This document shows, piece by piece, positions 6,236-55,722 of a stretch of DNA of 64,000 nucleotides. Source of the stretch: Elusimicrobiota bacterium (GTDB lineage: Bacteria > Elusimicrobiota > UBA8919); assembly GCA_016928195.1 (NCBI GenBank), contig JAFGLF010000044.1, positions 248,001 to 312,000 on the forward strand, read 5' to 3'. How positions within the stretch are numbered: the first letter of the stretch is position 1; every line of letters starts with the position of its first letter. The notes under the pieces are model-generated. The model worked only from the letters and a program-made list of their open reading frames with translations. It was not told where the DNA came from and did no database searches. The translations under genes were made by a program, and so were the position numbers.

Positions 6236-6384
6236 AGATTACGGCGATAAAAAGAACGATATCAACGATACGGAGAGAGGCTGATTACAACGATGAAAAG
6301 AAGATAACAGAGATAAAGCAAAGATTATCGCCGAAATCGTTATTTCATCGCTGCTATCGGCCGTTAATATCGTTGGGATCGGTA
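6236..6384. repeat. Family A hairpin word array between cobA and cobU
   Basis: GAT-containing words (GATATCAACGATACGGAG, GATTACAACGATGAAAAG, GATAACAGAGATAAAGC) on the left face ATC words (TTATCGCCGAAATCG, TCATCGCTGCTATCGG) on the right. It fills the entire gap. Confidence 0.7.
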
Positions 6385-6389
6385 TTTAT

Positions 6390-6899
6390 ATGGGGAAGAT
6401 TATACTTATTTTAGGCGGGGTAAAAAGCGGAAAGAGCAGTTTTGCTGTAGAACTTGCTAAGAAGTCCGGAAATGTAATTTTTGTTGCCACTGCAAGTCCC
6501 GGCGATTCAGAGATGAAAAAAAGGATCGAAAAACACAAAAAATCGAGACCGAAAAGCTTTAAAACAGTGGAAACAAGCAACAAACTCTCGGGTATCCTTA
6601 AAGAAAAATTTAACACTGCATTGATTGATTGCCTAACGATTTTCGTTTCCAACTGCATGCTTTCCAATAAAACCGAAAAAACCATAATTAAAGAGATTGA
6701 AGATACTCTTAAAAAAATAAAAAACAAAAACAGAAATGCAGTCATCGTATCCAATGAGGTGGGTTACGGTATTGTTCCCAAAAACAAACTTGCAAGGGAA
6801 TTCAGGGACGTATTGGGAAATGTAAATCAGGCAGTTTCCAGACTTTCGGACAAAGTATATTTCCTGATATCAGGGAACCCGGTACTGATAAAAAAATAG
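6390..6899 (+). CDS. cobU: Adenosylcobinamide kinase / guanylyltransferase
   Basis: The 169-residue protein has the CobU P-loop GGVKSGKSS at residues 9-17, VATASPGDSEM, a VSNEVGYGIVP motif and the ending LGNVNQAVSRLSDKVYFLISG. CobU phosphorylates adenosylcobinamide and transfers GMP to give AdoCbi-GDP, the substrate for CobS. Length and motifs are normal. It lies between cobA and a PP-loop ATPase in the salvage locus. Confidence 0.95.
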   Translation: MGKIILILGGVKSGKSSFAVELAKKSGNVIFVATASPGDSEMKKRIEKHKKSRPKSFKTVETSNKLSGILKEKFNTALIDCLTIFVSNCMLSNKTEKTIIKEIEDTLKKIKNKNRNAVIVSNEVGYGIVPKNKLAREFRDVLGNVNQAVSRLSDKVYFLISGNPVLIKK

Positions 6900-7030
6900 G
6901 GCTCCGTATCCGCCGCGGCGGACAGCCCTTGATTACAGTGATTGAACTGCGGGATTACACAGATTAGTACATGACTTGCTGTATCTGTGTAATCATTCTT
7001 CAAAATCTGTGTAATCAGCTGTAATGAACA
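6900..7030. repeat. Spacer with TCCGCC palindrome and family E words
   Basis: A 14-bp perfect palindrome TCCGCCGCGGCGGA is followed by family E words: GATTACACAGATTAG on the left and ATCTGTGTAATC twice on the right. No other gene was seen. Confidence 0.65.
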
Positions 7031-27521: not shown

Positions 27522-29357
27522 ATGAAAAAAGTTAAAAGAAATGATAAAGTGCGGAATATAGCTATAATAGCTCATGTTGACCACGGTAAAACAACGCTTG
27601 TTGATTATATGCTCAGGCAGAGCGGGACATTCAGGGCAAACCAGAATGTTGCCGAGCGGGTGATGGATGACATGGACCTTGAAAAGGAACGCGGGGTTAC
27701 CATATCTGCAAAAAACTGCTCCATATGGTGGAAGGGTGTAAGGATAAATATTCTTGACACTCCCGGTCATGCGGATTTCGGCGGCGAGGTGGAACGTGCG
27801 CTTAAAATGGTGGACGGGGCCATACTGCTTGTGGATGCAGCCGAGGGCACCCTGCCTCAGACGAGATTTGTTTTGCAGAAAGCCCTGGAAGCGGAACTTA
27901 AAATAATTGTAATGATAAATAAGATTGACCGGAAGGACGCCAGACCGAAAGAAGTGCTGGATAATGTATATGAACTGTTTTTGGATTTAGATGCAAAGGA
28001 ACATCACATAGAATTTCCTATAATTTATTCCGTCGGCAGAAACGGAATATCCCAGAAATCGCTTAATGAAAAAGGGAAGGATTTAAGTATATTGTTTGAC
28101 ACTATAATATCGGAAATACCGAGCCCTTCTTATAATGAGGACGAGCCGTTTCAGATGCTGGTGTGTGACCTTGATTATTCGGATTATATCGGCCGCCTGG
28201 CCGTCGGGAGAGTGTTTAACGGAAAAGTACTTAAGGACGATAATCTTATCTGCATAAAAGAAAACGGAAAACATGTCCCGCTGAAAATAACAAAACTTCA
28301 GTTTTATGAAGGGATTGACATAAAAGAAACTTCCTCTGCCTGTGCCGGGGATATTGTTATACTTGCAGGTATAGAAGATGTGTCAATCGGCGACACTATA
28401 TGTAATAAGGAAACACCAAAGGCACTCAGCCGTATAGAAGTAGATGAACCTACGATTTCTATGATATTTACCATAAACTCCTCTCCGCTTTCAGGAACAG
28501 AAGGCAGTATTGTACAGTCAAGAAAAATATTAGAGCGGTTAAAAAAAGAGACACTGCAGAATGTTGCAATTCGGTTAGAGGAAATTCCAGGTTCCGATAA
28601 ATATATTGTTAAAGGAAGAGGCGAGTTCCAGATGGAAATACTTATCGAAATGATGAGGAGGGAAGACTTTGAACTCAGCGTAGGCAGGCCTCAGGTTATA
28701 TTCAAGAAGAAAAACGGTAAAATATTAGAACCTATAGAACACCTGTTTATTGATTGTAATGATTCTGATATAGGTATTATCACCGAGAAACTTTCAAACA
28801 GGAAGGGCAGGATGATTAATATAATAAACCACGGTACGGGAAGAGTCCGGTTGGAGTTTACCGTGCCGTCACGTTCGTTAATCGGGTACAGAAGCGAATT
28901 TCTTACCGATACGAAGGGAACCGGGATAATAAGTTCATACCTTCAGGGATACGAAGAATTCAGGGGAGATTTTACGTTAAGAAAAACCGGTTCGCTGGTC
29001 TCAGACAGATTCGGTAAAGCCGTACCATACGCGATTTTTCGTCTTGAGTCCAGGGGGACACTCTTCATTTCTCCAAATGACCCGGTCTATGAAGGAATGA
29101 TAGTAGGCGAGAATAACCGTGAAACTGACTTAAATGTAAACCCGTGCAGGGAAAAGAAACTTTCAAACATGAGGGCTGCAGCAAAAGATGATAATATACT
29201 TCTTACTAATGTTCAGCCGATGACACTTGAGAAAGCAATAACATTTATAAAAGATGACGAACTTATAGAAATAACCCCGAAATCCATCCGTCTTAGAAAA
29301 ACGGCACTTCCGGCAAACCAGAGGAAAAGCCACAGCCCGAAACTAGAAATACAATAG
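27522..29357 (+). CDS. typA: Ribosome-associated GTPase BipA/TypA
   Basis: The 611-residue translation GTPase has the P-loop IAHVDHGKTTLVDYML, MDDMDLEKERGVTI, NILDTPGHADFGGE, and NKIDRKDARP, all EF-G/BipA type. The C-terminal BipA domain has SRSLIGYRSEFLTDTKG and GTLFISPNDPVYEGMIVGE. It assists ribosome assembly and stress adaptation. The ATG at 27522 is preferred over upstream in-frame starts, as homology begins there; AAAGGAGG lies about 16 bases upstream. The last codons (KLEIQ, stop) belong to a family D repeat word. Confidence 0.94.
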   Translation: MKKVKRNDKVRNIAIIAHVDHGKTTLVDYMLRQSGTFRANQNVAERVMDDMDLEKERGVTISAKNCSIWWKGVRINILDTPGHADFGGEVERALKMVDGAILLVDAAEGTLPQTRFVLQKALEAELKIIVMINKIDRKDARPKEVLDNVYELFLDLDAKEHHIEFPIIYSVGRNGISQKSLNEKGKDLSILFDTIISEIPSPSYNEDEPFQMLVCDLDYSDYIGRLAVGRVFNGKVLKDDNLICIKENGKHVPLKITKLQFYEGIDIKETSSACAGDIVILAGIEDVSIGDTICNKETPKALSRIEVDEPTISMIFTINSSPLSGTEGSIVQSRKILERLKKETLQNVAIRLEEIPGSDKYIVKGRGEFQMEILIEMMRREDFELSVGRPQVIFKKKNGKILEPIEHLFIDCNDSDIGIITEKLSNRKGRMINIINHGTGRVRLEFTVPSRSLIGYRSEFLTDTKGTGIISSYLQGYEEFRGDFTLRKTGSLVSDRFGKAVPYAIFRLESRGTLFISPNDPVYEGMIVGENNRETDLNVNPCREKKLSNMRAAAKDDNILLTNVQPMTLEKAITFIKDDELIEITPKSIRLRKTALPANQRKSHSPKLEIQ

Positions 29358-29468
29358 AAATACGGTTGAAATACATTGAAATACGATGGAAATATCTGCC
29401 GTGGCGGATTTGATTCGCGACAATTCGCGTTAGATTAGCGATAATTCGCGTCAGTTCGCGAAGCGAGT
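29343..29468. repeat. Family D words then family B right arm
   Basis: CTAGAAATACAATAG supplies the typA stop, followed by GAAATAC words. After TGCCGTGGCGGATT comes a family B right arm (GATTCGCGACAATTCGCG, TTAGATTAGCGATAATTCGCG). It separates two convergent genes and ends at the helicase stop codon. Confidence 0.6.
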
Positions 29469-42296: not shown

Positions 42297-42425
42297 CAAT
42301 GCAATAGCGCAATAGAGCAGAAGTACAGAGAGCAAAAGTAACTTCTAAACTTTTGTACTTATAACTTTTGCACTCTTGCACTGGTGTTTTGAACTTTTGC
42401 ACTTGCTGCTTCTGCACTTTGTACT
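42297..42425. repeat. Family G hairpin word array
   Basis: GAGCAGAAGTACAGAGAGCA on the left; CTTTTGCACTCTTGCACTGG and CTTTTGCACTTGCTGCTTC on the right. A second copy is at 49801. Confidence 0.7.
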
Positions 42426-47465: not shown

Positions 47466-47741
47466 ATGCTAAAATATAATATAATAATCAGCGGAGAAGT
47501 ACAGGGGGTCGGGTACAGGTATTTTGTTGTTCGGGAGGCAGCCCGGTTTAGAATAGGAGGCTGGGTAAAAAATCTTTCAAACGGAGATGTTGAACTGCTG
47601 GCAGAAGGTGAAAAAGAAACACTTGATAATTTTGTTAATACAATAAAAACAAAACATTCGTGGGCAAGAGTTGACGACATAAAAATTTCAAAAACGGAAA
47701 CCAAAGAAAAAGAATTCAAGAATTTTAATATAATATACTGA
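47466..47741 (+). CDS. Acylphosphatase
   Basis: The 91-residue protein has the acylphosphatase signature ISGEVQGVGYRYFVVREAAR (catalytic Arg) and GWVKNLSNGDVELLAEGE (catalytic Asn). It hydrolyses acyl phosphates. ATG at 47466 is chosen; a TTG at 47457 is also in frame. TATACT at 47451-47456 lies nine bases before the ATG, another near-leaderless arrangement. The stop (TGA) begins a family A array. Confidence 0.92.
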   Translation: MLKYNIIISGEVQGVGYRYFVVREAARFRIGGWVKNLSNGDVELLAEGEKETLDNFVNTIKTKHSWARVDDIKISKTETKEKEFKNFNIIY

Positions 47742-47885
47742 TTACAGCGATAAAAAGAATACGATTACAGTGATAAACAGACGATATTAACGATAAGGGA
47801 AAGTCTTATCGCTGATATCTGTAGTTCATCGCCGGTATCAGTGACTTATCTCTGGTATCGTTAGTTTATCGTTGTTATCAATATT
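47739..47885. repeat. Family A array starting at the acylphosphatase stop
   Basis: TGATTACAGCGATAAAAAG, GATTACAGTGATAAACAG, GATATTAACGATAAGG on the left; TATCGCTGATATCTG, TCATCGCCGGTATCAG, TTATCTCTGGTATCG and TTATCGTTGTTATC on the right. Confidence 0.75.
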
Positions 47886-52900: not shown

Positions 52901-53398
52901 CTAAATCAAAAATCAAGAGCACTGGAAATATTTAATTTTCTTTTAACTTACAGGAGACCTGCCGGCTGGAGGCAATGGTCAGAAGCAGTCTATAAACCGG
53001 TCCGGGACAACGGATATATAGGCGACATGCCTCATACGTGGATAAGCTCGGGATTTATAAATACGGTAAGAAGTATGTTTGTCTATGAACTGGAAGAAAA
53101 TAATTCTTTGATTCTCGGAGCAGGCATACCGGAGGACTGGCTGAAAAACGAAAACACCGTCGGGATTAAAAATGCCCCGACATACTGGGGGAATCTCAGC
53201 TATACTATGAAAAAAACCGGGAATAATATAAACGTGAAAATAGAAGGGGATTTAAAAGTTCCGGGCAAAATAATTTTGAAATCGCCTTTGGCCAAATCTA
53301 TAAAATCAGTAAAAATAAATAACAAAGCATATAAGAATTTTTCACAAACTGAAGTTGTTATAAATAAGATACCTACGGAAGTTGAAATACAATATTAG
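49907..53398 (+). CDS. Large secreted glycosidase-like protein with two discoidin domains
   Basis: The 1163-residue protein has a signal peptide ending NAEA. Two F5/8 type C (CBM32-like) domains follow: about 25-145 (AGNVADGNLKTRWSS, GFSIYEIKLKL) and 146-272 (AQNAVDGNMDTRWSS, WGYSIYEIVM). A jelly-roll segment (about 275-425) has WYKNIFYVPASW. A beta-rich region precedes a six-hairpin (alpha/alpha) domain at about 710-1080 with AYEAAWVRDGALTSSALLKMG and GYIGDMPHTW. This architecture fits an exported polysaccharide-degrading enzyme. The GH family is not identifiable by eye. Confidence 0.78.
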   Translation: MVKNKFYILLAGLFFLLNFNAEANIIVEASSSENEEFRAGNVADGNLKTRWSSIFKDSQWLILDLEQITEFNNIQIHWEPAHAKEYDILISNDKTKWKKIHSTSNSPGGTESIKLQKKVTAKYIKFDLKKRVTKWGFSIYEIKLKLLGEASASSVSEPELAAQNAVDGNMDTRWSSKHHDPQWLKIDFGGIKDFVGLVIYWEAAYGKSYDILFSKDDITWKKVYSTDSSDGEIDEIDFEKETARYMKIVGKQRGSYWGYSIYEIVMRTTAEPWGEGETPGGFYKKEWYFRTDPKNIGEKEKWYVFKNKLDGWKKINTGIEWKRQGFKDYNGYAWYKNIFYVPASWEKSGPLLIVNDIYKDYTLYINDTKINLSGKSGKQIQLKVKDYIKINQLNSIALKVHSPSGKGGIIGSVSLIENKEALDKKLSGLRGKNSKQYYQFLADLKPSGYSPYWLKREQGFWTVVGTDNDFKESLVYEDGSIEPYKSFSIFPFIYMDNQLITHEDVVLEQSLDKGCIPTPSVKWKHKEFNMHITVLNHGETAKSVTYAEYSIKNTGQKTIEGKLFLAIRPFEINPPWQWGGIHNIRKLEYIEKENTVSTPEYDILTYTKPTGFGAVNYNDGDIIEYIEKGKIPEKIKTEDDEGYASGVIEFKFKLEPGKEKDFFIAIPLYKDSAVMKSREDSFKSAFNKMRGELVEFWKEKLNRVEFIIPDKDILDTIRANLAYIFINKDGPAIQPGSRAYEAAWVRDGALTSSALLKMGYKKEIKEYINWYSKHIYKDGRVPAIIIIGRNEVNPVKEYDSQGELIYTILQYYQFTKDKDFLKEEIPVVLNVLKYLEYLRDQRTGKKYQNGPFYGILPNSVSHEGYYPEPGNHSHWDNFWALKGWKDAGTIFMITGRKDLINRVNREENELRQALNKSIRYSIKEKNIDYIPGCAELGDFDPTSTAISVMACNEYKNLPEFEFANTFKKYYNNVMERMKPGWTGSFTPYEIRSVQALIYLNQKSRALEIFNFLLTYRRPAGWRQWSEAVYKPVRDNGYIGDMPHTWISSGFINTVRSMFVYELEENNSLILGAGIPEDWLKNENTVGIKNAPTYWGNLSYTMKKTGNNINVKIEGDLKVPGKIILKSPLAKSIKSVKINNKAYKNFSQTEVVINKIPTEVEIQY

Positions 53399-53434
53399 GC
53401 AGTAGGCAATAGGCAGTAGGGTGTAGTGAAAGAC
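53396..53434. repeat. Family H left arm (7-bp words) before the S23 pseudogene
   Basis: TAGGCAGTAGGCAATAGGCA and then GTAGGGTGTAG: 7-bp words GGCAGTA, GGCAATA, GGCAGTA, GGGTGTA starting at the previous gene's stop codon. The right-side copies are at 53815-53972. Confidence 0.7.
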
Positions 53435-53819
53435 ATGGATAAAGTTAAAGATTTTAAAGATCTGATAGTTTGGCAAAAAGCATATCAATTAGCACTTTTA
53501 GTATATAAAATTACAGCAAATTTTCCAAAATCAGAAATATATGGAATTACTCTACAAATGCGCAAATCAGCAGTTTCGATTCCTTCAAATATCGCGGAGG
53601 GATATCGCAGACAGTAGCAGACAGTATACGGGTGAATATGTACATTTTTTATCTATAGCATTTGGTTCTTGCGGTGAATTAGAAACACAAATTTTATTAG
53701 CAAAAGATATTGGTTTTCTTAAAAACAATGATTTTGAAATTGTATATAATCTTTGTCAAGAAGTTTCAAAGATGTTGAACTCTTTAATTATATCATTAAA
53801 AAAGGACCATGGGGAATAG
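53435..53819 (+). pseudogene. S23-type four-helix-bundle gene, frameshifted by a 10-bp duplication
   Basis: The first frame (from ATG 53435) reads KDFKDLIVWQKAYQLALLVY and ends SIPSNIAEGYRRQ-stop. The next frame continues QYTGEYVHFLSIAFGSCGEL, then ETQILLAKDIGF. Together they make a full S23/Avd-like four-helix-bundle protein. The break is a tandem copy of GCAGACAGTA (53607-53616 and 53617-53626). Removing one copy restores the frame as GYRRQYTGEY. S23 family proteins are known from 23S rRNA intervening sequences and as Avd in diversity-generating retroelements. The ORF lies among family H repeat arms. Confidence 0.9.
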
Positions 53820-53974
53820 TAGGGAATAGGGTGTAGAAAACATCAGGGTATAGGCAATAGGGTGTAGGGTATAGAAAAGTCAATGACTTAGCTACTGCCT
53901 ACTGCCTATTCTCTACTGCCTGACTCTACTGCCTGACTCTACTGCCTACTGCCTATACCCTACACCCTGACGTT
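53815..53974. repeat. Family H direct and inverted arms (7-bp words)
   Basis: After the S23 pseudogene, GGAATAG/GGGTGTA/GGCAATA words continue in the left-arm orientation to about 53880. From 53890 the inverse words dominate: ACTGCCTACTGCCTATTC, CTACTGCCTGACTCTACTGC, ending TACCCTACACCCTGACG. The two halves can pair. Confidence 0.75.
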
Positions 53975-53977
53975 ACT

Positions 53978-54616
53978 ATGATTGACCTACACACACATAC
54001 ATTATTTTCTGACGGCCAGCTTTTGCCCTCAGAACTTATACAGCACGCTAAAGAAGCCGGATATACCGCGATCGGATTAACAGACCACTGCGATTTTTCC
54101 AATATCGATTTTGTGATACCGCGTATCGCACGGGTTACAAAGGAATTAAGCAAATACTATAAAATCAGGGTAATATGCGGATGTGAAATTACTTATGTTC
54201 CTCCGGCATTAATAAAAAAAGCGGTGACCCGGGCAAGAAAACTCGGTGCTGAAATAGTGATAGTTCACGGCGAATCGCCTGTTGAACCTGTACCTGCAGG
54301 GACAAACAGGGCTGCACTGGCTTCCGGATGCGACATACTGGCACATCCCGGATTTATAAAAAAAGAGGACGTAATGCTTGCCAAAAAAAATAGTGTTCTT
54401 CTTGAAATCACTACAAGAAGAGGACACAGAAACGGCAATCCGCATGTAGCAAAACTGGCAAAAGGTTTGAATGCCAATCTTATATTAAACACGGATTCAC
54501 ATCTGCCGGAAGATCTGCTGGATGACAAAAAAACAAAAGATGTTCTTAAACAGGCAAAATTAACATATTCGGATTTCAAACAAATGCAGAAGAATGCCTA
54601 TAAGTTGATACGCTGA
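53978..54616 (+). CDS. PHP-domain phosphatase (histidinol-phosphatase-like)
   Basis: The 212-residue protein has IDLHTHTLFSDGQLLPSELI, GLTDHCDFSN, CGCEITYVPP, VIVHGESPVEPV, ILAHPGFI and LILNTDSHLPEDL, all PHP metal motifs. Length and pattern match the small PHP phosphatases related to HisK/YcdX. No his genes are near, so substrate is unknown. Its last codons (LIR, stop) lie in family C repeat words. Confidence 0.85.
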   Translation: MIDLHTHTLFSDGQLLPSELIQHAKEAGYTAIGLTDHCDFSNIDFVIPRIARVTKELSKYYKIRVICGCEITYVPPALIKKAVTRARKLGAEIVIVHGESPVEPVPAGTNRAALASGCDILAHPGFIKKEDVMLAKKNSVLLEITTRRGHRNGNPHVAKLAKGLNANLILNTDSHLPEDLLDDKKTKDVLKQAKLTYSDFKQMQKNAYKLIR

Positions 54617-54633
54617 TATGCTGATATGTATAT
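54606..54633. repeat. Family C left arm before the intact S23 gene
   Basis: GATACGCTGATATGCTGATA and TGTATATAT: GAT at 8-bp steps, including the end of the PHP gene. The right arm is at 55006-55035. Confidence 0.7.
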
Positions 54634-55002
54634 ATGTATAAAAGATTTGAAGAATTAAACGTATGGAAAGAAGCAAGAAAATACAAGAAAGATATACATG
54701 AATTAGTTAAAAAGTTTCCAAGAAAAGAATTGTATGTTTTAACAAATCAACTATGTCGAGCAGCTAATTCTATTACAGCAAATATTGCAGAAGGTTATGG
54801 TAGATATCACTGGCAGGAAAATATACAAGCATGTAGAGTCTCTCGTGGTTCTATAAATGAAATTTTAGATCATTTATATACAGCATTAGATTGTGAATAC
54901 ATAACACAGGAAACATTTGATAATTATTATTCAAGGGGTCGAGATTTAGAAAGATTACTTAATGGTTACATACGTTATTTGGAAAAATGTAAAAACACTT
55001 AA
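54634..55002 (+). CDS. S23/Avd-type four-helix-bundle protein, intact
   Basis: The 122-residue protein reads KRFEELNVWKEARKYKKDIH, FPRKELYVLTNQLCRAANSI, TANIAEGYGRYHWQENIQAC and SINEILDHLYTALDCEYITQ. This is the 23S-rRNA-intervening-sequence (S23) four-helix-bundle family, whose biochemical role is not settled. Avd relatives bind nucleic acid in retroelements. It is flanked by family C arms on both sides, which can pair around it. Base composition is more AT-rich than its neighbours. Confidence 0.92.
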   Translation: MYKRFEELNVWKEARKYKKDIHELVKKFPRKELYVLTNQLCRAANSITANIAEGYGRYHWQENIQACRVSRGSINEILDHLYTALDCEYITQETFDNYYSRGRDLERLLNGYIRYLEKCKNT

Positions 55003-55005
55003 TTC

Positions 55006-55040
55006 CATATCACCGTATCACCATATCACCATATTAACAA
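55006..55040. repeat. Family C right arm after the intact S23 gene
   Basis: CCATATCACCGTATCACC and ATATCACCATATTAAC, reverse-complement words to the left arm (GGTGATATGG against GCTGATATGC). AAGGAG for the next gene follows. Confidence 0.7.
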
Positions 55041-55050
55041 GGAGCTAACC

Positions 55051-55722
55051 ATGCCGCGTCAATGGGTAAAAGAAGAACTCAAACATGATATCCTGAGAAA
55101 TTTTATTGAAAAAGCTGTTCCTTACGTTAAGACTCACAGGGATGCTGTTATTACTTCAGGAGTAATATTTATAATAATTGTTGCAATTGCAACAATTACG
55201 ATAACCAGATTTAAAAAAGCATCCCAGCTTGCAACGGAACAGATTGGCTTTGCCGGAATGTTCCTAAGGGCAGGACAACTTGACAAAACCATACAGTTAT
55301 GCGACCAGATAATCCAAACCCACCCTTCAGGCACACAGGGCGGTTATGCCCACTTCTACAGAGCCGAATCATATTATGTAAAAAGGAACTATGATGAAGC
55401 TATAACATCATATGAGTCAGCACTGCCTTTGTTAAAAAACAGGGAGGATTTAAAACCAATGATTCTTTTTTCAATGGCACAGGCCTATGAGTCCGCAAAA
55501 AAACTCCCGCAGGCTATAAATACATATAAACAATTAATAGATGAAAACTCGGCACATTATCTTGTTCCGGAAGCACAGCTCGGAATCGCAAGATGCTATG
55601 AACAGACAGGTGATGTACAGTCCGCGGTTTCCTATTACCAGACCGTAGGCAGTTTACATCCCACAACAAAATATAAGATAGTCGCAGACGCAAGAATCCA
55701 GGCCCTACAAAAAAGGCAGTGA
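55051..55722 (+). CDS. Membrane-anchored TPR protein (YfgM-like)
   Basis: The 223-residue protein has an N-terminal cytoplasmic tail rich in K/E, one membrane helix (VIFIIIVAIATITITRF, about 36-52), then three to four tetratricopeptide repeats (AHFYRAESYYVKRNYDEAIT, LFSMAQAYESAKKLPQAINT, QLGIARCYEQTGDVQSAVSY). This layout resembles YfgM/CpoB-type envelope proteins that bind other proteins. Partners are unknown. AAGGAG precedes ATG. Confidence 0.82.
   Translation: MPRQWVKEELKHDILRNFIEKAVPYVKTHRDAVITSGVIFIIIVAIATITITRFKKASQLATEQIGFAGMFLRAGQLDKTIQLCDQIIQTHPSGTQGGYAHFYRAESYYVKRNYDEAITSYESALPLLKNREDLKPMILFSMAQAYESAKKLPQAINTYKQLIDENSAHYLVPEAQLGIARCYEQTGDVQSAVSYYQTVGSLHPTTKYKIVADARIQALQKRQ

What the first reader, a model, noticed from the sequence alone, without database searches (positions are those of the whole stretch)
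53396..55040. S23/Avd-type ORFs sit among hairpin arms, twice, in two different word families
A frameshifted S23 gene lies amid family H arms, and an intact S23 gene 0.8 kb later lies between family C arms. Word arms usually meet with only a small loop; here they enclose a coding loop. In 23S rRNA, intervening sequences likewise are hairpins with an S23 ORF in the loop. The two ORFs differ in sequence, as their arms do. The empty arrays may therefore be non-autonomous relatives of S23-carrying elements, so S23 proteins could be the mobility or structural partner of the spacer hairpins. That is inference.
Basis: partly seen in the sequence, partly recalled or inferred. Interest (0 to 1): 0.88.

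Follow-up and report, generated by a model that had tools for sequence, protein, structure and literature searches.

The report
S23 genes inside word-repeat hairpin elements
Across many bacterial phyla, genes for the unexplained 'S23' protein usually sit between two mirror-image runs of a short repeated DNA word, the word tends to follow the protein, and comparisons of related genomes show the whole unit present or cleanly missing, so they look like small mobile elements whose gene-less relatives litter the genome.

Summary
Both S23 (PF05635) genes in the window lie between inverted arrays of a 7-8 bp word, TAGGCAG and GATATGGT. All seven S23 loci of this genome look so by eye, each with a different word. 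In 80 loci from many phyla, 51 have strongly inverted flanks (z>5; 60 at shuffle p<=0.01), against about 3-4% of other genes. Each own S23 word has 3-18 further gene-less arrays in 384 kb of the same genome; words of S23 genes from other phyla have about 0.4. Word similarity follows S23 protein similarity: the window's intact S23 has a 78%-identical relative in another genus, with the same word, at an unrelated place. Orthologous gaps show arm-S23-arm present in one genome and absent in relatives, with breaks at the outer arm ends. S23 is under purifying selection (dN/dS 0.05-0.16 in five pairs). The 23S rRNA intervening sequence, with heptamer repeats before its S23 gene, looks like one rare landing site. 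Most likely these are small mobile elements, and S23 is the word-specific partner of both full and empty copies. Binding, mobility and the enzyme are inferred: the own genome has no reverse transcriptase, and no other enzyme is encoded inside the two window elements.

The parts
53396..53426 (+). G-rich 5' arm of element 1, word TAGGCAG (period 7)
53426..53819 (+). S23/IVP gene of element 1, broken by a frameshift (frame 1 ORF 53426-53617, frame 2 ORF 53541-53819)
53607..53626 (.). 10-bp tandem duplication GCAGACAGTA x2 at the frameshift
   Evidence: 10 bp shifts the frame by +1
53820..53874 (+). second G-rich block of the same word, forming a small hairpin with the 3' arm
53892..53968 (+). C-rich 3' arm(s) of element 1, word CTGCCTA
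53978..54616 (+). PHP-domain phosphatase gene (neighbour); its last codons and TGA stop (54614-54616) lie inside the 5' arm of element 2
54605..54629 (+). G-rich 5' arm of element 2, word TGATATGC/GATATGGT (period 8)
54634..55002 (+). intact S23/IVP gene of element 2, 122 aa, four-helix bundle
55005..55036 (+). C-rich 3' arm of element 2, word CCATATCA
55051..55722 (+). TPR gene; directly follows the PHP gene in six relatives (empty site of element 2)

Best explanation
Each S23 gene is the coding centre of a small mobile element of roughly 0.4-0.5 kb: inverted array of a 7-8 bp word, S23 gene, inverted array. The G-rich strand of the word reads inward from both ends. The unit sits mostly in gaps between co-directional genes, in the sense orientation, so that host read-through can transcribe it. 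The S23 protein (four-helix bundle, structural relative of the DGR protein Avd, pentameric in solved homologues) recognises arrays of its own word and is needed to spread or maintain them. Arrays of the same word without a gene are non-autonomous copies or deletion derivatives, as REP/REPIN elements are to RAYT genes. An S23 intervening sequence in 23S rRNA is such an element in an unusual place. Shown: anatomy, generality, co-inheritance of word and protein, shared words with gene-less arrays, presence/absence as a unit, purifying selection on S23. Inferred: word recognition, mobility through S23, RNA or DNA intermediate, the nuclease or polymerase used (probably a host enzyme).
For: Inverted flanks z>5 in 23/36 phylum and 51/80 wide S23 loci against 16/280 other ORFs, 8 of which are themselves S23, and about 11/296 in the own contig. 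Periods 7 or 8 (14/16 as doublets) in 92 of 98 arms, same period in both arms in 73. Own words have 3-18 extra copies in C62, mean 9.1, against about 0.4 for 69 far words (p=2e-7); same trend in G011 (6.3 against 1.8, p=0.005). Partial Mantel of word on protein similarity with GC controlled: r=0.137, 2/1000 permutations; within-genome paralogues have unlike words. Same word plus related S23 at an unrelated locus in G006 (L021). Filled and empty sites: PHP-TPR gap, empty in 6 relatives; L026 element absent in G059 and G047 with breaks at the arm ends; L028 element absent in 3 congeners. Convergent array pairs 24 against divergent 1. Sense to antisense S23 between co-directional genes 89:1. dN/dS 0.05-0.16 in 5 pairs. 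Fold: 2gsc, 2rld, then Avd 4dwl and DGR RNP 8ub7.
Against: No binding, excision or transposition data. No recognised catalytic motif in S23. No clear target-site duplication at the sites read. About a quarter of S23 loci lack arms. G059 has about 25 arrays of the L028 word but no S23 gene with that word in its assembly. The Mantel correlation is weak overall; distant S23 proteins sometimes share a word. Two of seven G011 words have 0-1 other copies in the part scanned. The same gap can carry different words in congeners, which a simple insertion model does not predict. Array copy counts include single arrays, not only hairpins.
Confidence: 0.6

Rival explanations
1. RNA-level selfish element: the transcript folds into a long hairpin with S23 in the loop, is cut by RNase III as in 23S rRNA IVSs, and spreads by reverse transcription, with S23 acting like Avd.
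For: Fold relationship to Avd and the DGR ribonucleoprotein; S23 is sense to its neighbours 89:1; the Coxiella IVS is cut by RNase III (PMC4990558).
Against: No reverse transcriptase match in the own genome, and RT is no commoner in S23+ genomes (5/23 against 9/37). Arm mismatches show no bias to G.U pairs (G/A 122 against A/G 124; T/C 37 against C/T 50), so pairing in the sense RNA is not visibly selected.
Confidence: 0.2
2. The arrays are mobile by other means, and S23 is a passenger or homing gene that enters pre-existing array loops.
For: Arrays without S23 are common; some word families have no S23 found; G059 has arrays without a matching S23.
Against: In the PHP-TPR gap and the L026 gap the relatives lack both arms and gene; word follows protein.
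Confidence: 0.2
3. The arrays are spread by RAYT/Y1 transposases, like REPs, and S23 only tags along.
For: Y1_Tnp occurs in 19/23 S23+ and 6/37 S23- genomes of the phylum.
Against: RAYT genes here are mostly flanked by their own ~25-bp REP-type inverted units, not by short-period words. Complete genome G024 has 4 S23 genes and no Y1 match. The association is confounded by family and genome size.
Confidence: 0.1
4. The arms are only regulatory (terminator or processing hairpins) for an ordinary S23 gene.
For: Arms lie directly at start and stop; inward stops are common (word has a stop in 76/98 against 58.7 expected, driven by TAG).
Against: The same words occur far from S23 in many copies; symmetrical arms; presence/absence as a unit.
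Confidence: 0.08

Closest known systems
23S rRNA intervening sequences (IVS) with S23/IVP gene (Coxiella, Leptospira)
   Same: S23 gene; Coxiella IVS has tandem GACAGAT heptamers before the start codon (PMC4990558); scattered distribution, thought mobile
   Different: These lie between protein genes, not in rRNA (none of 116 loci showed rRNA motifs beyond isolated single-motif hits); many words per genome; many gene-less arrays; S23 under purifying selection, whereas Coxiella's is said to decay
Heptameric repeat arrays of Xanthomonas (GGGAATC) and Nostoc; cyanobacterial STRRs
   Same: 7-bp words; Xanthomonas arrays often in convergent pairs (PMC4692102); a Nostoc plasmid S23 lies between (AGTAGGG)n and (CCCTACT)n
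   Different: That paper does not mention S23 and generally found no link to mobile elements
RAYT / REPtron and REP, REPIN elements
   Same: A gene between inverted copies of a repeat whose gene-less copies are dispersed in the genome
   Different: Repeat is a tandem short word, not a single ~25-bp palindrome; S23 has no HUH/Y1 nuclease; RAYTs of the same phylum carry different repeats
Avd of diversity-generating retroelements
   Same: Four-helix-bundle fold, TM about 0.77
   Different: Only 8-9% identity, no RT, TR or VR next to the S23 genes read here; Avd models match far below cut-off

Membership tests
S23/IVP protein family (PF05635, TIGR02436) | profile match over cut-off | tested here: met
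   54634-55002: 112 bits (cut-off 33.8) and 107 bits (24)
S23/IVP protein family (PF05635, TIGR02436) | four-helix bundle fold of 2gsc/2rld | tested here: met
   model pLDDT 95, TM 0.88 to 2gsc
23S rRNA IVS | lies in a 23S rRNA gene | tested here: not met
   between protein genes
23S rRNA IVS | S23 gene with tandem heptamers and inverted repeats around it | tested here: met
   compare PMC4990558
23S rRNA IVS | RNA excised by RNase III | not testable with these tools
   -
RAYT/REPtron | Y1/HUH transposase gene | tested here: not met
   window S23 matches only IVP/Avd-type Pfam models
RAYT/REPtron | flanking inverted repeat with dispersed gene-less copies | tested here: met
Diversity-generating retroelement | reverse transcriptase | tested here: not met
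   no PF00078 match in the own genome
Diversity-generating retroelement | template/variable repeat pair | not tested
   -
Insertion sequence | known transposase inside the element | tested here: not met
   each window element encodes only S23
Insertion sequence | target-site duplication | tested here: inconclusive
   none obvious at the sites read; flanks 70-85% identical

The most novel reading that the evidence does not exclude
A class of mobile element spread over many phyla, in which termini made of short tandem words are recognised by an element-encoded pentameric S23 protein, with no transposase, integrase or reverse transcriptase of its own, and in which word and protein diversify together; rRNA intervening sequences and cyanobacterial/Xanthomonas heptamer arrays would be its best-known traces.
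Probability: 0.4. Interest if true: 0.93.

Novelty: new variant of a known kind. Interest (0 to 1): 0.86.

Why it matters
S23/IVP proteins are widespread and have no known function; short tandem heptamer arrays have been reported for years without a known agent. If the two are one system, both questions become testable with one protein and one DNA or RNA oligonucleotide per word. It would also explain rRNA intervening sequences and add a mobile element without a known recombinase.

Tried and rejected
Long-range RNA hairpin as the selected form: G.U asymmetry test negative. Arms as all-frame stop signals: stops exceed within-word shuffles, but TAG/AGT drive it, not TGA or TAA. RT-driven spread: no RT in the own genome, no association. 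RAYT-driven spread: different repeats. Polarity of all hairpins in the contig: uninformative, dominated by other hairpins; restricted to own words it is clear. Operon-sense bias as evidence for an RNA element: ordinary genes show similar co-orientation, so only the 89:1 sense/antisense ratio is kept. Phage carriage: no match in 50,697 phage records. Rfam on 53000-55300: only sub-threshold matches. A presence/absence rule 'S23 of word X if and only if arrays of X' in four congeners failed for G059.

Full report
Observation. The window holds two S23/IVP genes. The first (53426-53819) is split between two frames, with a 10-bp duplication at the break; the second (54634-55002) is intact. Element 1 is bounded by TAGGCAG arrays, element 2 by GATATGGT-type arrays. 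The genome has six S23 genes and one remnant. By eye every one lies between inverted arrays of a different word: AAGCGAGT, ACAGATG, AAAGATT, GTTCTTAT, GATATGGT, TAGGCAG, GTGAGTA. The remnant's arms are not significant on their own.

Generality. For 36 S23 loci of the phylum and 80 loci from named genomes (Bacteroidota, Planctomycetota, Omnitrophota, candidate-phyla bacteria, Acidobacteriota, Clostridia and others), the 220-bp flanks were aligned as inverted copies and compared with dinucleotide shuffles. z>5 in 23/36 and 51/80; 60/80 with at most 1 of 100 shuffles reaching the score. Other ORFs of 110 aa or more in the same loci: 16/280 with z>5, 8 of them S23 genes themselves. In the own contig 12/297 ORFs pass, one of them S23; four of the others tested are a phosphoribosyltransferase-like protein, CobO, CobU and a protein without Pfam match. 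Arms have period 7 or 8, are about 30-40 nt long (4.6-4.8 words at the median for periods 7 and 8), and their 5' strand is 30% G, 10% C.

Words and gene-less arrays. In 384 kb of the own genome, outside the S23 sites, own words hit 3-18 further places each (mean 9.1); 69 words from other phyla hit about 0.4 (p=2e-7). Two same-phylum elements with many hits (L021:2387 and L036) are the protein relatives of own elements L005 and L003. In G011 the difference is smaller (6.3 against 1.8, p=0.005). Arrays of own words that pair do so convergently: 24 against 1. Word and protein similarity correlate with GC controlled (r=0.137, 2/1000); pairs with protein similarity above 0.62 have mean word similarity 0.44 against 0.23 overall. 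Some distant S23 proteins share words (AGTGATT, AGTAGTC), so convergence or exchange also occurs.

Presence and absence. PHP and TPR genes flank element 2 here; in six relatives they are neighbours with no S23 between (L138 read in full). The PHP gene now ends inside the 5' arm, which supplies its last codons and stop. In one genus, the L026 element is in G024 and G055 and missing in G059 and G047, the alignment breaking at 1408 and 1871 of the locus, the outer ends of the arms. The L028 element (between a YbaB-like gene and recR, names from the sequence) is only in G047; G059 and G024 have gene-less hairpins of other words in that gap.

Protein. dN/dS is 0.05-0.16 in five pairs (saturated dS, so rough; three further pairs gave no dS). 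The AlphaFold2 model (pLDDT 95) matches 2gsc and 2rld, then Avd and the DGR RNP. Solved relatives have five chains; Xcc0516 is described as a pentamer (PMC4990558).

Mechanism. The unit behaves as one insertion, and word and protein tend to travel together, so I read S23 as the word-specific partner of full and gene-less copies. Not shown: binding, catalysis, intermediate. RNA pairing is not visibly selected; RT is absent here; RAYTs carry other repeats. S23 lies sense to co-directional neighbours 89:1, which fits dependence on read-through or oriented insertion.

Known context. Coxiella's IVS has tandem heptamers before S23 (PMC4990558). Xanthomonas and Nostoc heptamer arrays are known, often convergent in Xanthomonas, without a named partner (PMC4692102). 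A Nostoc plasmid S23 sits between AGTAGGG arrays. In nine literature searches of an open-access library I found no paper joining S23 to word arrays; most subscription papers and all bioRxiv preprints are not held, so priority is not certain.

Noticed in passing
L028/L192 (G047:C25), L248 (G059:C5), L250 (G024:C1), L249 (G055:C14): The same YbaB-like/recR gap carries an S23 element in G047, gene-less hairpins of different words in G059 and G024, and another gene in G055, with outer flanks shared between G047 and G059 almost to the arm. Repeated insertion at one spot or in-place word change; unexplained.
   Followed up: partly
L159:1300-1900 (Nostoc edaphicum plasmid pNe_5): S23 gene between (AGTAGGG)n and (CCCTACT)n arrays, lying between two ribonucleotide reductase subunit genes.
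   Followed up: partly
L163-L181 (RAYT/Y1_Tnp loci in the phylum): RAYT genes mostly flanked by individual ~25-bp inverted units (GGGGACGGTTCT..., GGGGACGGAGGTAATTAA...), a REPtron-like anatomy with a different repeat per gene; the own-genome Y1 gene (L162) lacks clear ones.
   Followed up: partly
window 6300-6400, 6900-6970, 29344-29461, 42301-42319, 47735-47879; contig C62: Word families without an S23 gene found in this genome: GATTACAGCGATAA-like (about 20-bp period), GCAAAAGT, AACGCTAAT, AATAGAAATACGA.
   Followed up: no
L242-L247, L206: A second, more divergent S23-like clade (about 50 bits to my profile) is mostly also flanked by inverted word arrays.
   Followed up: partly
98 S23 element arms: Words share an excess of TAG and AGT (41 and 40 against about 24 expected from within-word shuffles); cause unknown.
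   Followed up: partly
L148 (G055:C27) against L026 (G024:C1): Same S23 element at the same site in two congeners with clearly diverged words (CAGCTCGG-like against TAGAAGTT) and, in G055, poorly matching arms.
   Followed up: no
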